Below are positions 1-11,365 of a stretch of 64,000 nucleotides of DNA, piece by piece. The stretch comes from Polyangium jinanense (GTDB lineage Bacteria; Myxococcota; Polyangia; Polyangiales; Polyangiaceae), in contig NZ_JAGTJJ010000006.1 in assembly GCF_028435365.1 (NCBI RefSeq), positions 62,001-126,000 of the forward strand. Direction: 5' to 3'. The number at the start of each line of letters is the position of its first letter. Position 1 is the first letter of the stretch. A model generated the notes under the pieces. It was not told where the DNA came from. It did no database searches and worked only from the letters and a program-made list of their open reading frames with translations. The position numbers were made by a program, and so were the translations under genes.

Positions 1-503
1 GGGATCTCGAAGAGCAGGGGGAGCGGCTCCTTGGCCTCGGGCGTCACGCCGAGCGCCACGTGGACCTGCTTCGAGCAAATGATGATGCCGATCGCCGCGA
101 GCATCCCGTGCACCACGGACGAGGGGAAAAAATCGCCGAGGGCTCCGGCGCGCGCGAGGGCAAACCCGATCTGGAGCACGGCGGCCACCACGATCGTGGC
201 GAGGGCGCGTCGATAACCGACCGAGCCGTTACCATTGCCGAGCTCCGTGACCGCGCCGAGTGCGATGACGATGAGCCCCGCGGCGGGCCCCTTGATGGTG
301 AGCGTCGCGCTGCCTATCCATGTGGCGATCACGCCGCCGATGACGGCCGTGATGATGCCCGCCACGGGCGGAAAACCGCTCGCCATGGCGATGCCGAGGC
401 AAAGCGGTAATGCGATCAGAAAGACGAGAAATCCGGCGACGAGGTCGTTCCGGATGGAAGGCGCGCCCGTGGGCACACCGGCGCTCTGGTCCGGCTTGTC
501 CAT
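1..503 (-). CDS. SulP-family anion (probable bicarbonate/sulfate) transporter, N-terminal part
   Basis: Reading leftward from an ATG at 503, the frame stays open to the window edge and gives about 167 residues, so the C-terminal half (including any STAS domain) lies outside. The segment starts with a short polar stretch, then NDLVAGFLVFLIALPLCLGI, a typical SulP first helix, followed by SGFPPVAG and the loop TIKGPAAGL that shapes the anion site in this family. Several hydrophobic segments follow. SulP proteins move sulfate, bicarbonate (BicA type) or other anions across the inner membrane. A GAGGG-type ribosome site precedes the ATG. It diverges from the DabA-containing operon, and the shared intergenic palindrome supplies a possible ECF-type promoter for it. 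I infer bicarbonate as the likeliest substrate from this context; sulfate cannot be excluded. Confidence 0.85.
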   Translation of the reverse strand, partial: MDKPDQSAGVPTGAPSIRNDLVAGFLVFLIALPLCLGIAMASGFPPVAGIITAVIGGVIATWIGSATLTIKGPAAGLIVIALGAVTELGNGNGSVGYRRALATIVVAAVLQIGFALARAGALGDFFPSSVVHGMLAAIGIIICSKQVHVALGVTPEAKEPLPLLFEI

Positions 504-576
504 AAAACCCTCTGCGGATCGGTCACGGACATCGAAATTCCGTACCCCACGACCTCGGTCGTGCGATCCGATCCAC

Positions 577-605
577 AAGACGGATCGAGGCGACCGACAG
601 GTTCC
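577..605 (-). promoter_or_regulatory. Putative ECF-type promoter facing the SulP gene
   Basis: On the minus strand GGAACC (605-600) is followed after 17 bases by CGTC (582-579), the classical ECF sigma -35/-10 arrangement. The predicted transcript would have a leader of about 70 nt before the SulP ATG at 503. The -35 box is one half of the palindrome at 600-613, whose other half serves the rightward operon. The spacing is one base longer than at the two rightward copies. Confidence 0.45.
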
Positions 606-8252: not shown

Positions 8253-9815
8253 ATGAACGAGATTCCCTACTCCTCGGCCTTGCCCTTCCCGGTCCTCGGC
8301 GCGCTCATCCTCGTGCCGCTCCTCGCCGCGGCGTTCGTCCGTTCCCTGAAACACGCGCGCCACATCTATGCCATTGGCCTCGGCGGCGCCGCGCTCGAGC
8401 TCGTCCTCGCCGTCATGGTCGTGGCCCGATTCGAGCGGCACACCTCCGCGCTCCAGCTCGTCGAGCGTGTCCCGCTCTTCGGCAACTTCGCCTATCACGT
8501 CGGCGTCGACGGCATCAGCGTCCTCTTTCTGCCGCTGACGGCGCTGCTCGCGCTGCTCGTCATCCTCCACGCGCAGGTTGCATCCAAAGAGCGGCCCGGC
8601 CATTACCTCGCCGCCATCTTTTGCCTCCAGTCGACGCTCATGGGCGCGTTCGTCGCGCTCGATCTCCTGCTCTTCTGGGCGTTCGCCGCGCTCGAGCTCG
8701 TGCCCGGCACGCTGCTCGTGCGGAGCTGGGGCACGGGGCCGGGGAGGCACGCGGCGGCGCGTCGGTATGCGGCGCTCAATGCGATGGGCGTCCTGCTCGT
8801 CCTCGCGGGCGCGCTCGTCCTCGGCCGCGTCACCGGTGGTCGATTCTCCTTCGACGCGCTGCTCGACATGCCCGCGCCGGCACGTGCGCAATCCCTCGCG
8901 TTCTGGCTCTTCGTCCTCGGCTTCGCCATCCGGATCCCGCTCTTTCCTTTCCACGGATGGCTTCCGCCCGTCATGGCCGAGGGCCCGGTCGTGGGCGTGA
9001 GCGTCTTCCTCGTCGGCGCCAAGCTCGGCGTGTACGGCCTTCTGCGATTCGTGGTCCCGCTCCTCCCCGTCGCCGCGCATCGACACGGTTCCATTCTGGC
9101 GATCCTCGGCGTCGTCGGGATGCTCTACGGCGCCCTCCTCGCGCTCGTCCAGACAAACCTACGGCGCCTCGTCGCATTCGCCTGCCTCGCGCACACGGGC
9201 GCCGTGCTCGTGGGGCTCTCGGCGCTCAACGTGGAAGGACTCTCGGGCGCGCTGCTCGTCACGCTGAACGTCGGCCTGAGCGCGGCCGGGCTTTATTTCG
9301 TCGCGGGCTTCTTGCACCGCCGCCTCGGCTCGACCGAGATCGAGCGCGCCGCGCGGCTTTCGCATCGCGCGCCTCTGCTCTCGTTCACGTTCCTGCTCGT
9401 TGGCCTCTCGACGATCGGAATGCCGGGGACGAGCGGCTTCGAGGCCGAGCACCTCGTCGTCGTGGGCGCGCTCGGCGCGCGGCACGGCATCATGGCCATC
9501 GCGGTCGGCCTCGGCAGCTTGCTCGGGGCCGCCTATTTGCTGCGTTATTTCCAGCGCGCCTTCCTCGCCCCCGCCGCGTCCCCGCCTGGCTCTCCCGCGG
9601 CCGAGGCGAAATCGACGCGCGGCAAGAGCGTGCGTGACCTGAGCGCGCGTGAGCTCGTCATTGCCGGCGCGGTCGGCGCGATCATCGTGGGCCTCGGGCT
9701 CTTTTCTCACCCCTTGCTCGAGGTCGTGGACGGCTCGGTCCGCGCCATGTCCACGCGGCTCGAGCACGCCAAACCGCATTCGTCCCTCGTGATGCACGGG
9801 GAGGGCGCCCCGTAA
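8253..9815 (+). CDS. NuoM/MrpD-like membrane subunit with altered channel residues
   Basis: About 520 residues, polytopic, related to NuoM: YHVGVDGISVLFLPL near the N-terminus and IPLFPFHGWLPP in the centre. The helix-7 lysine is replaced by arginine (R227, FAIRIPLF), and the helix-5 glutamate position, five residues before the conserved LVP proline, holds alanine, with a glutamate two residues later (ALELVP). The changes suggest a modified or structural role in the complex. I chose the ATG at 8253, two bases after the dabB stop; a TTG at 8247 in the same frame would overlap it. The operon continues after 23 bases. It may be an MrpD-like spacer subunit; its substrate ion is unknown. Confidence 0.82.
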   Translation: MNEIPYSSALPFPVLGALILVPLLAAAFVRSLKHARHIYAIGLGGAALELVLAVMVVARFERHTSALQLVERVPLFGNFAYHVGVDGISVLFLPLTALLALLVILHAQVASKERPGHYLAAIFCLQSTLMGAFVALDLLLFWAFAALELVPGTLLVRSWGTGPGRHAAARRYAALNAMGVLLVLAGALVLGRVTGGRFSFDALLDMPAPARAQSLAFWLFVLGFAIRIPLFPFHGWLPPVMAEGPVVGVSVFLVGAKLGVYGLLRFVVPLLPVAAHRHGSILAILGVVGMLYGALLALVQTNLRRLVAFACLAHTGAVLVGLSALNVEGLSGALLVTLNVGLSAAGLYFVAGFLHRRLGSTEIERAARLSHRAPLLSFTFLLVGLSTIGMPGTSGFEAEHLVVVGALGARHGIMAIAVGLGSLLGAAYLLRYFQRAFLAPAASPPGSPAAEAKSTRGKSVRDLSARELVIAGAVGAIIVGLGLFSHPLLEVVDGSVRAMSTRLEHAKPHSSLVMHGEGAP

Positions 9816-9838
9816 GGGCGCTCGGGAGGCGTTTCGTC

Positions 9839-11365
9839 GTGCAAATTCGCGAGATCTTCGCCGCAGATCAGGTCGGTTTTCCCGTCCTCTCCACGCTGAT
9901 CTTCCTCCCCCTCGCCTGGGCGATCCTCGTCCTCGCGATCGGCGACGAAAGACGCGCGCGGTGGACGGCGCTCACCGGCGCCGTGATCGAGCTTTTCCTC
10001 TCGCTCTTCGTGCTCGCGCGGTTTTCGCCCGGCACGCCCGACGTGCAATTCGCCGAGCGGCGCCCGTGGATGCCCACGCTCGGCGCGAGTTATCACCTCG
10101 GCGTCGATGGCATGAGCGTCCTCTTTTTGCCCGTCGCCTCGATGCTCACGGTGCTCGTGCTCGTCGCCTCCTGGCACGACGTGAAGACGCGCGCCCGCGG
10201 CTTCTGCGCGTCTCTCCTCGCGCTCTCCGCGATCGTCGTGGGCATCTACGCGTCGCTCGACCTCGTCCTCTTTTTCGTGTTCTGGGAGGCGTCGCTCGTC
10301 CCCATTTATTTCCTCGTGAGCCTCTGGGGCGTGGGCCCCGAGCGCCGGTATGCGGCGATGAAGTTCGTGCTCACGATGCTCGCCGCCTCGGGGCCGCTCC
10401 TCCTCGGCATCATCCTGCTCGCGGTCGGGGGCCGGCAAAACCCGGCCGATCCGTACACCTTCGACTGGCTCGTCCTCCGCGCGCGGCCGGTCCCGGCGGC
10501 GATTGGCCCGATCGTGTTCTTCACGATGCTCACCGGCTTCGCCGTCAAGGGCCCCTTCGTCCCGCTCCACACCTGGATGCCCACGATGCTACGCGAGTGC
10601 CCCGTGGGGATTGGCGTCCTTTTGACCGGGCTCAAGCTCGGCAGTTATGGGGTGCTCCGCTTCCTCGTGCCGCTGCTCCCCGAGGCCACGGCGCGTTATG
10701 CGTGGCTCCTCGGCGCCATCGGCGTCACGGGCGTCGTGTACGGCGCGCTCGTCGCGCTCGTCCAGCCAAACCTGCGGCGCATGCTCTCGTTCTCGTGCCT
10801 GAGCCACGTGGGTATCGTCCTCGTCGGCATCTCGTCGGGCAAAGCGGAGGGCCTCTCCGGCGCGGTGCTCGCGATGCTCAACCTGGGTTTGTCCGCGACG
10901 GGTCTGTTTTTCCTGACCGGCTTTTTGCAGAGCCGCGTGGGCTCGTCCGAGGTCTCGGCGCTCGGCGGCGTCGCCCAGAAAGCGCCACGCGCGGCCGTGA
11001 TGTTCTTGCTCTTGAGCCTCGCAGGCATCGGCGTCCCCGGCACGAGCGGCTTCCCCGGCGAGCACCTCGTCCTGCTCTCGGCCTACGAAACGAGCCTTCC
11101 GCTGCTCGGGTTCGCGCTCCTCGGCACGATCCTCGGCGCGGCCTACGTCCTCCGGGTCTTCGAGCAGGTCTTCCTCGGCCCCGTGACGCGCCCGCGCGTC
11201 GCCTCGATGAAGGACCTCCGGCCCCTCGAATGGGGCGTCGTCGGGTGCCTCGCCATTCTCGTGCTCGTGGTCGGCCTGTATCCGCGGCCTTTGCTCGCGA
11301 TCGTGGGCCCGAGCGCCGAGGCCCTCGCGCGCCCGGCGACCTCGGCCGTCGCCGCCCACCCGTGA
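9839..11365 (+). CDS. NuoM/MrpD-like proton-translocating membrane subunit (last of operon)
   Basis: A 508-residue polytopic protein with intact family residues: helix-5 glutamate E150 in FFVFWEASLVP and helix-7 lysine K237 in AVKGPFVPLHTW. YHLGVDGMSVLFLP is shared with the preceding gene, so the two look like diverged duplicates. The start is a GTG at 9839 preceded by GGGAGG about ten bases upstream, which decides the start. With the first NuoM-like gene, DabB and the preceding gene it brings the operon to four antiporter-like subunits around one DabA. Its last codons lie 25 bases before the ECF-type promoter of the sigma factor gene, so that gene may be read both from the operon and from its own promoter. 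Confidence 0.85.
   Translation: MQIREIFAADQVGFPVLSTLIFLPLAWAILVLAIGDERRARWTALTGAVIELFLSLFVLARFSPGTPDVQFAERRPWMPTLGASYHLGVDGMSVLFLPVASMLTVLVLVASWHDVKTRARGFCASLLALSAIVVGIYASLDLVLFFVFWEASLVPIYFLVSLWGVGPERRYAAMKFVLTMLAASGPLLLGIILLAVGGRQNPADPYTFDWLVLRARPVPAAIGPIVFFTMLTGFAVKGPFVPLHTWMPTMLRECPVGIGVLLTGLKLGSYGVLRFLVPLLPEATARYAWLLGAIGVTGVVYGALVALVQPNLRRMLSFSCLSHVGIVLVGISSGKAEGLSGAVLAMLNLGLSATGLFFLTGFLQSRVGSSEVSALGGVAQKAPRAAVMFLLLSLAGIGVPGTSGFPGEHLVLLSAYETSLPLLGFALLGTILGAAYVLRVFEQVFLGPVTRPRVASMKDLRPLEWGVVGCLAILVLVVGLYPRPLLAIVGPSAEALARPATSAVAAHP

What the first reader, a model, noticed from the sequence alone, without database searches (positions are those of the whole stretch)
1..11365. Enlarged inorganic-carbon transport complex: DabA with four antiporter-like subunits plus a SulP transporter
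Known DabAB/MpsAB systems have one DabA and one NuoL-like DabB. Here one operon encodes a long DabA (zinc ligands present) with DabB and three further NuoM-like subunits, directly divergent from a SulP anion transporter. No complex I electron-input genes are present. A larger number of proton-coupled channels per catalytic subunit could mean a stronger driving force, or use of Na+, in a bacterium not expected to fix CO2.
Basis: partly seen in the sequence, partly recalled or inferred. Interest (0 to 1): 0.8.

Follow-up and report, generated by a model that had tools for sequence, protein, structure and literature searches.

The report
Carbonic-anhydrase complex with four antiporter-like subunits
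A myxobacterium carries an operon that puts a CO2-hydrating (DabA-type) subunit together with four proton-channel-like membrane proteins related to those of respiratory complex I; the same gene order recurs in nitrifiers, methanotrophs and soil bacteria, so it looks like a widespread but functionally untested enlarged version of a known carbon-uptake machine.

Summary
Window 689-11365 is a tight five-gene operon, M1-DabA-DabB-M2-M3, divergent from a SulP gene cut by the window edge. DabA keeps the five catalytic residues mapped in the DAB2 structure. The order is not peculiar to this bacterium (a Polyangium): all five genes appear in this order in 59 of 106 other loci examined, in several phyla. 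Part is in print: a 2017 paper noted that ybcC (dabA) upstream of nuoL often comes with SulP and NuoM. My searches turned up no report of the three- and four-extra-subunit forms or of these facts: DabB and M2 are one polypeptide in Competibacter relatives; DabBs with an antiporter-like neighbour keep the complex-I TM5 glutamate (85 of 86), which all 7 of a partnerless clade lack; a DabA insert and a DabB TM12-15 segment agree in 92 of 94 loci. Best reading: pmf-driven CO2 hydration on a complex-I-like membrane arm, feeding bicarbonate to heterotrophic carboxylations here (no RuBisCO in 6 of 6 Polyangium genomes). Assembly, ion and stoichiometry are inferred; the finger acid essential in DAB2 is missing from about half of relatives.

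The parts
3..503 (-). SulP-family anion transporter, N-terminal part only (gene runs off the window start; start codon is my choice)
   Evidence: PF00916 E 4.9e-22; SulP divergent from M1 also in L031, L116, L117, L119, L120, L121, of which L031 and L117 are the same contig by length and origin
504..688 (.). divergent intergenic region, probable promoter region for both units
   Evidence: sequence; promoter not tested
689..2149 (+). M1, NuoM-like antiporter subunit, 486 aa
   Evidence: PF00361 2.1e-68, TIGR01972 483 bits; E138, K221, K252, E393 invariant in 74 of 74 aligned M1s (74 of the 77 found)
2157..6092 (+). DabA, 1311 aa, carbonic-anhydrase-like subunit
   Evidence: PF10070 8.6e-248; aligns with DabA2 9rd0_A, E 3.3e-72
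2649..3431 (+). DabA N-terminal insert, about residues 165-425, found only with long DabB
   Evidence: limits approximate, with a partly alignable island at about residues 275-350; residues 170-300 were the stretch tested
4482..4496 (+). DabA C776, D778, R780 codons (zinc ligand and Asp-Arg dyad)
   Evidence: alignment to C351, D353, R355 of DabA2; functional residues named in PMC13144422
4782..4784 (+). DabA D876, carboxylate in the finger motif (position of DabA2 E444)
   Evidence: alignment
5058..5105 (+). DabA H968 to C983 (zinc ligands)
   Evidence: alignment to H524 and C539 of DabA2
6085..8250 (+). DabB, NuoL-like, 721 aa
   Evidence: PF00361 and PF00662; closer to NuoL (1.7e-68) than to DabB2 (2.4e-31) in PDB sequence search
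6526..6528 (+). DabB E148, TM5 glutamate kept in DabBs that have antiporter-like neighbours
7171..7704 (+). DabB segment matching NuoL TM12-15 (about residues 363-540), absent from the shorter DabBs of classes B and C
   Evidence: the TM numbering is my mapping
7705..8247 (+). DabB C-terminal region that I map to the NuoL lateral helix and last TM helix
   Evidence: alignments; Foldseek alignments of 599-787 columns to NuoL-type chains but rmsd 8-19 A; model confidence low here
8253..9815 (+). M2, NuoM-like, divergent (TM7 Lys is Arg; TM5 Glu displaced by two residues); an upstream TTG at 8247 is the other possible start
9839..11365 (+). M3, NuoM-like with the usual E/K/K/E set
11569..12159 (+). 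ECF-type sigma factor (start codon not determined; 11569 is a cut of mine), possible linked regulator
   Evidence: PF08281, PF04542; adjacent in L031, L116, L117, L119-L121, L123, L115, L122
12156..12761 (+). 201-aa protein with one hydrophobic stretch, anti-sigma-like by position only
   Evidence: no Pfam match at E 0.01; conserved beside the sigma gene
12801..14108 (+). Porin_O_P-type outer-membrane porin, possible anion route
   Evidence: PF07396 8.1e-07; next to the cluster also in L126 at 43%

Best explanation
The operon encodes one membrane complex. DabA is a beta-carbonic-anhydrase-like subunit that hydrates CO2 at a buried zinc. It docks on DabB, a NuoL-type subunit, by a finger motif. 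M2, M3 and M1 extend the membrane part into an arm like that of complex I without its redox arm, with M2 next to DabB. Downhill H+ entry through the arm drives one-way CO2 hydration, so bicarbonate collects in the cytoplasm. In this presumably heterotrophic Polyangium the bicarbonate would feed carboxylases; the neighbouring SulP protein, and perhaps the porin, would move bicarbonate or another anion, and an ECF sigma factor would control the set. Shown here: genes, residues, conserved order, natural DabB-M2 fusion, linked presence of DabA and DabB segments. Inferred: assembly, direction, H+ as the ion, and the roles of SulP, porin and sigma factor. The number of H+ per CO2 is unknown, and M2 may not be a full pump.
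For: Catalytic residues C/D/R/H/C in 92 of the 94 loci tabulated, window included. Finger carboxylate D876 in the window. In DabB the NuoL TM12 Lys-Asp pair reads Pro-Gly, near the less certain end of the printed alignment to a NuoL, as expected where a DabA finger takes that place (PMC13144422 section 11). M1-DabA-DabB-M2-M3 in 59 of 106 other loci (some genes cut by contig ends or split, L031 and L117 the same contig). DabB-M2 fusions: 47 of the 120 listed hits cover 86-100% of the fusion query (P0127-P0173), and loci L043, L045, L046, L047. DabB TM5 Glu in 85 of 86 DabBs with an antiporter-like neighbour against 0 of 7 in the partnerless clade. DabA insert matches DabB TM12-15 in 92 of 94 loci; L123 (contig length and DabA length of Polyangium spumosum P0009) lacks both while five other Polyangium genomes and the window have both. 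M1 path residues 74 of 74; M3 set largely intact. M1 and M2 are each one clade in the 57-row tree.
Against: I saw no biochemistry for any enlarged member. The finger acid, essential in DAB2, stands at the aligned column in 6 of 7 class A and 13 of 21 class D loci (window included) but only 28 of 54 class C and 0 of 12 class B. M2 has lost the usual residue set: TM7 Lys is Arg in 52 of 59, TM12 acid kept in 16 of 59, though present in the window. L055 has Lys at the DabB TM5 site; L135 keeps the Glu without a detectable partner. The TM5 pattern rests on one split in the tree and the insert pattern on at least two changes, so neither is many independent events. L099 and L081 have DabA without DabB nearby. 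More than one or two H+ per CO2 is not needed on simple thermodynamics (my estimate). The AlphaFold models were too weak to show how subunits pack. Two beta-carbonic anhydrases in each of six Polyangium genomes, and an alpha type in 3 of 6, mean the operon is not their only CO2-hydrating enzyme.
Confidence: 0.58

Rival explanations
1. The complex works the other way or on another reaction: an exergonic reaction at DabA pumps ions outward through the array, as the COGNAT authors proposed in 2017, when they could not predict a function for the DabA family.
For: The number of subunits and the complex-I-like arm are what a pump would have; the idea is in print (PMC5700660 section 10).
Against: The nearest solved relative is described as hydrating CO2 driven by pmf with reverse dehydration prohibited (PMC13144422 abstract); the catalytic residues are the same here. 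Bicarbonate dehydration would release too little energy to pump several ions (my estimate).
Confidence: 0.13
2. The NuoM-like subunits exchange Na+ for H+ (Mrp-like), so that Na+ pumped out drives Na+-bicarbonate entry through a BicA-like SulP, with DabA equilibrating CO2 and bicarbonate.
For: SulP lies within 3.5 kb of DabA in 22 of 65 well-flanked loci, directly upstream of M1 in L041, L108 and L110. The extra fifth subunit in the four examples scanned (L033, L041, L064, L108) is nearest an Mrp-D-like model, below its cutoff. MpsAB is argued to use Na+ (quoted in PMC13144422).
Against: M1, M2 and M3 score as NuoM above the family cutoff and M1 and M3 carry the NuoM set; no room for Mrp small-subunit genes in the operon. 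DAB2 appears Na+-independent. Most class C loci show no SulP in the stretch examined.
Confidence: 0.15
3. DabA-DabB acts alone, as DAB2 does; the NuoM-like genes are co-transcribed but form a separate unit.
For: DAB2 works as a heterodimer; M2 is degenerate.
Against: DabB-M2 fusions; order in 59 of 106 loci; DabB in classes B and C has lost TM12-15, which class A DabBs keep; TM5 Glu kept where neighbours exist and, without one, only in L135.
Confidence: 0.1

Closest known systems
DAB2 (DabA2-DabB2) of Halothiobacillus neapolitanus, structures 9rd0/9rd8/9rd9, PMC13144422
   Same: DabA family, zinc ligands and Asp-Arg dyad, finger motif with a carboxylate, a PF00361 partner without the NuoL TM12 Lys-Asp pair
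   Different: DAB2 has one membrane subunit, a DabA of 870 aa, and a DabB of 551 aa with Ile at the TM5 site and only a short axial helix; here three more antiporter-like subunits, a DabA insert, a 721-aa DabB with Glu at that site and a longer C-terminus. The two-gene class A loci here have DabB first; DAB2's own gene order was not checked
'Clade C' ybcC-nuoL neighbourhoods with SulP and NuoM (COGNAT, PMC5700660)
   Same: ybcC (dabA) upstream of a nuoL-like gene, with COG0659 SulP and COG1008 NuoM; mention of operons with several membrane-subunit genes and the idea that their number relates to ions moved
   Different: the section read gives no count of NuoM genes and no enzyme function; fusions, a fifth subunit and co-varying segments are not in it; its supplementary figures were not seen
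MpsAB of Staphylococcus aureus
   Same: NuoL-like plus DabA-like pair supplying inorganic carbon to a non-autotroph (abstract start; passages)
   Different: proposed Na+-bicarbonate symport (as quoted in PMC13144422); no NuoM-like subunits named in what I read
Cyanobacterial NDH-1MS, PMC6981117 (search listing and start of abstract only)
   Same: CO2 concentration coupled to a complex-I-type membrane arm
   Different: keeps a redox arm, and its hydration subunit is not DabA (recalled)
2M complex I of Nitrospira (passages of PMC6606698 and PMC7784846)
   Same: an additional NuoM, thought to raise H+ stoichiometry
   Different: a complex I with most of its other subunits; no DabA mentioned in the passages read

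Membership tests
DAB/DAC vectorial carbonic anhydrase (DabA + DabB) | PF10070 DabA over the full profile | tested here: met
   8.6e-248, profile 1-747
DAB/DAC vectorial carbonic anhydrase (DabA + DabB) | zinc Cys-His-Cys plus Asp-Arg dyad | tested here: met
   C776, H968, C983, D778, R780
DAB/DAC vectorial carbonic anhydrase (DabA + DabB) | finger carboxylate completing the DabB channel | tested here: met
   D876 at the E444 position; Asp instead of Glu, and an acid is found in only 47 of the 94 tabulated loci
DAB/DAC vectorial carbonic anhydrase (DabA + DabB) | adjacent PF00361 partner lacking NuoL TM12 Lys-Asp | tested here: met
   the second part rests on the end of one alignment
DAB/DAC vectorial carbonic anhydrase (DabA + DabB) | DabB belongs to the DabB2/MpsA lineage rather than NuoL | tested here: inconclusive
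   nearer NuoL by score and in the tree at 89/89, below the strong threshold
DAB/DAC vectorial carbonic anhydrase (DabA + DabB) | two-subunit composition | tested here: not met
   four PF00361 proteins in the operon
DAB/DAC vectorial carbonic anhydrase (DabA + DabB) | pmf-driven CO2 hydration and DIC accumulation | not testable with these tools
   needs expression and uptake assays
COGNAT clade C neighbourhood | ybcC upstream of nuoL with NuoM and SulP nearby | tested here: met
   window order against PMC5700660 section 10; whether it falls in their tree clade was not tested
Respiratory complex I | electron-input and quinone modules with the membrane genes | tested here: not met
   none in the operon; NuoD and the NuoL/M/N-like triplet elsewhere in six Polyangium genomes
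Mrp antiporter | MrpA-G set including small subunits | tested here: not met
   five genes back to back with no small subunit between

The most novel reading that the evidence does not exclude
A separate class of complex-I-like machine: the NuoL/NuoM proton arm was recruited from complex I, independently of the DabB/MpsA lineage, and a DabA carbonic anhydrase took the place of the redox arm, so that CO2 hydration is geared to several proton channels. Sister forms carry 1, 3 or 4 extra channels.
Probability: 0.3. Interest if true: 0.82.

Novelty: new variant of a known kind. Interest (0 to 1): 0.57.

Why it matters
It would link two textbook machines. A natural complex with a complex-I-like arm but a carbonic anhydrase as its only catalytic part would let long-range coupling be studied without electrons. 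The series with 0, 1, 3 and 4 extra subunits would make 'does subunit number set the H+ per turnover?' directly testable. It would also name an inorganic-carbon system in nitrifiers, methanotrophs and soil bacteria, some of whose parts carry names such as NADH-quinone oxidoreductase subunit M in databases.

Tried and rejected
Rejected: stray complex I operon (electron-input genes elsewhere); Mrp antiporter (no small subunits); novelty of the order itself. P0176 (792 aa, short contig) looks like a DabA tail running into a DabB that lacks its first residues; I give it no weight as a fusion. L032 reads DabB and M2 in one frame of 1162 aa but with part of the expected junction missing; not counted. 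P0180 was left out of the fold alignment because it looks like a complex I NuoL-NuoM chimera; P0178 looks like a second, diverged DabB-M fusion and was kept.

Led nowhere: mixing single DabB and M2 rows with fusions gave an alignment (A2) whose shared columns lay in the DabB half, which suggested that M2 rows had been placed there; I did not use it. The DabB model (mean pLDDT 63) and the fusion model (72, linker under 50) match NuoL- and NuoM-type chains but do not fix the packing.

What the counts leave out. The 94-row table drops two short DabBs (L076, L103), adds four fusion proteins cut to 545 residues and cuts L032 to 720. Residue counts use 74 of 77 M1, 59 of 65 M2 and 65 of 72 M3 (length filter). 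Subunit counts use 65 of 107 loci with enough flank; the window misses that filter by nine bases. In them L043 counts its fused protein only, its M1 lying further off, and the one subunit of L081 is M1, not DabB.

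
Full report
What is there. Window 689-11365 holds five genes on the + strand with overlaps or gaps under 25 bp: M1 (NuoM-like, 486 aa), DabA (1311 aa), DabB (NuoL-like, 721 aa), M2 and M3 (NuoM-like). A SulP gene, cut by the window start, is divergent from M1 across about 185 bp (families). The best DabA hit (P0007, 90% over the searched part, Polyangium sorediatum) and locus L031 (94%, Polyangium sp. y55x31) place the window in or near Polyangium; its own assembly is not held.

Catalytic residues. In the printed alignment to DabA2 (9rd0_A, E 3.3e-72) window C776, D778, R780, H968 and C983 fall on C351, D353, R355, H524 and C539. 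These are the zinc ligands and Asp-Arg dyad named in PMC13144422 (section 8 read). The finger glutamate E444 falls on D876. In DabB the NuoL TM12 Lys-Asp pair reads Pro-Gly near the end of the alignment to a NuoL chain, as in a subunit whose half channel is completed by the DabA finger (section 11 read).

How common. I fetched the best 80 of 567 confirmed places in named genomes and 26 loci from 26 of the 29 relatives that have DabA, searched the six window proteins against all frames and read off gene order. All five genes stand in the order M1-DabA-DabB-M2-M3 in 59 of these 106 loci. Some are cut by contig ends, L068 has M2 in two frames, and in L034, L037 and L038 the M2 gene scored best with M3. 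L031 and L117 are the same contig. By record title the hosts include Nitrosomonas, Nitrosospira, Methylobacter, Methylomonas, Magnetococcales, Rubrobacter, Chloroflexi, Acidobacteria and Rubrivivax. In 65 of 107 loci with enough flank the antiporter-like count is 4 in 38, 5 in 5, 3 in 1, 2 in 12, 1 in 7, 0 in 1 and 6 in 1. The last (L088) includes two hydrogenase-4 genes, so it is a four. The fifth protein, in the four examples scanned, is nearest an Mrp-D-like model but below its cutoff. The sample is centred on this DabA and is not a population survey.

Four classes (my labels). A: DabB and DabA, no other subunit found. B: usually SulP, then DabA, DabB and one NuoM-like. C: M1-DabA(about 1090 aa)-DabB(about 520)-M2-M3. 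D, the window's class: M1-DabA(about 1300)-DabB(690-820)-M2-M3, often with SulP and sometimes a fifth subunit.

Three comparative findings. First, DabB and M2 are one polypeptide in Candidatus Competibacter/Contendobacter relatives: loci L043, L045, L046, L047, and 47 of the 120 listed hits cover 86-100% of the fused query (P0127-P0173). That argues that DabB and M2 are neighbours in one complex. Second, the TM5 glutamate of NuoL, which DAB2 has replaced by Ile151 (section 11), is present in 85 of 86 DabBs with an antiporter-like neighbour or fusion partner (Lys in L055) and absent in all 7 class A DabBs; L135 has it without a detectable neighbour. On the tree this is one split, so it is suggestive only. 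Third, a DabA insert (tested at window residues 170-300) and a DabB segment matching NuoL TM12-15 agree in 92 of 94 loci (19 both, 73 neither); the exceptions, L040 and L064, have DabAs cut by the contig end. L123, which fits Polyangium spumosum P0009 in contig and DabA length, lacks both while the window and five other Polyangium genomes have both. A FastTree of 107 DabAs needs at least two changes for each character. The two segments may therefore touch or work together.

Against a simple transfer of the DAB2 mechanism: the finger acid, essential in DAB2, stands at the aligned column in 6 of 7 class A, 13 of 21 class D, 28 of 54 class C and 0 of 12 class B loci. The window has it. Where it is missing, the proton path must differ or the column is misaligned.

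Are the channels intact? M1 keeps Glu, Lys, Lys, Glu in 74 of 74 aligned. M3 keeps them in 54, 58, 58 and 63 of 65; the exceptions at the first three are seven class B subunits and, for the first, four genes of class D loci (L034, L037, L038, L064) where the M2 gene may have been taken as M3. M2 does not: its TM5 Glu is displaced by two residues (52 of 59), TM7 Lys is Arg in 52 of 59, and the TM12 acid is kept in 16 of 59, the window included. So not all four membrane subunits need be pumps.

Origins. In a 57-row tree of chosen loci M1 is one clade (100/99) beside Polyangium NuoM (97/83); M2, M3 and the class B subunit form one group (100/99), M3 itself not being one clade. DabBs of classes B-D group with Polyangium NuoL rather than with the two class A DabBs included (89/89, below the strong threshold). 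In the PDB search window DabB scores far better with NuoL than with DabB2 (1.7e-68 against 2.4e-31). This leaves open that a complex I arm was recruited for DabA a second time.

Setting. In six Polyangium genomes RuBisCO is absent (0 of 6), the NuoD family and a NuoL/M/N-like triplet lie elsewhere, each has two beta-carbonic anhydrases and 3 of 6 an alpha type. Among 59 relatives RuBisCO passes the cutoff in 2 (G010, G058; a third, G046, falls below it); none of the three has DabA (where 29 of 59 do). Of 40 genomes with DabA loci of classes C and D, 19 have RuBisCO; completeness is given for only one of the 40. The system thus occurs with and, as far as these assemblies show, without the Calvin cycle. 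An ECF sigma factor with a small partner ORF lies just downstream; close homologues (67-98%) sit beside the dab locus in the other Polyangium loci and beside SulP in class B loci L115 and L122, and weaker ones (29-31%) in L111 and L081. A Porin_O_P gene follows.

Mechanism and limits. The best reading is pmf-driven CO2 hydration on a complex-I-like arm. The chemistry rests on homology to DAB2 and the assembly on fusion, order and co-variation. I estimate that one H+ per CO2 at about 180 mV already allows about a thousand-fold displacement, so 'more channels, more drive' is not needed and may be wrong. Models of DabB and of the DabB-M2 fusion match NuoL- and NuoM-type chains but do not show packing.

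Prior work. PMC5700660 (passages and section 10) reports that ybcC upstream of a nuoL homologue often has SulP and NuoM beside it and suggests that subunit number relates to ions moved. PMC13144422 (outline, abstract, passages, sections 8 and 11) describes the two-subunit DAB2. PMC7784846, PMC6606698 and PMC13399641 were read as passages. Searches, in an open-licence library only, turned up no title, abstract start or passage read that reports the three- or four-extra-subunit forms; most papers of subscription journals are not in that library.

Noticed in passing
window 11569-12761: ECF sigma factor and small ORF directly after M3; homologues are linked to dab loci in Polyangium and in single-NuoM class B loci L115 and L122, where the sigma gene is divergent from SulP.
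   Followed up: partly
window 12801-14108: Porin_O_P-type porin next to the cluster, with a 43% relative beside M3 in L126; could be an anion route through the outer membrane.
   Followed up: partly
L099 4791-9182: A Nitrospira locus has SulP and a very long DabA (1463-aa open frame) with no antiporter-like gene found in the 19-kb stretch.
   Followed up: partly
L088 10001-13306: DabA in which the Asp-Arg dyad positions align as Glu-Gln (CEQHC), in a locus with hydrogenase-4-like genes upstream; alignment or real change not settled.
   Followed up: no
L075 51-2618: DabA with Tyr at the place of the last zinc cysteine (CDRHY), from a short metagenome contig; sequencing error or real change not settled.
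   Followed up: no
L115, L122, L125-L132, L134, L135: Class B DabAs have no acid at the aligned finger column that is essential in DAB2, and their DabB lacks TM12-15, so their proton path may differ.
   Followed up: partly
window 14964-18170: Serine/threonine protein kinase with TPR repeats on the minus strand.
   Followed up: no
window 38696-45807: Lactate/malate dehydrogenase-type and isocitrate/isopropylmalate dehydrogenase-type genes.
   Followed up: no
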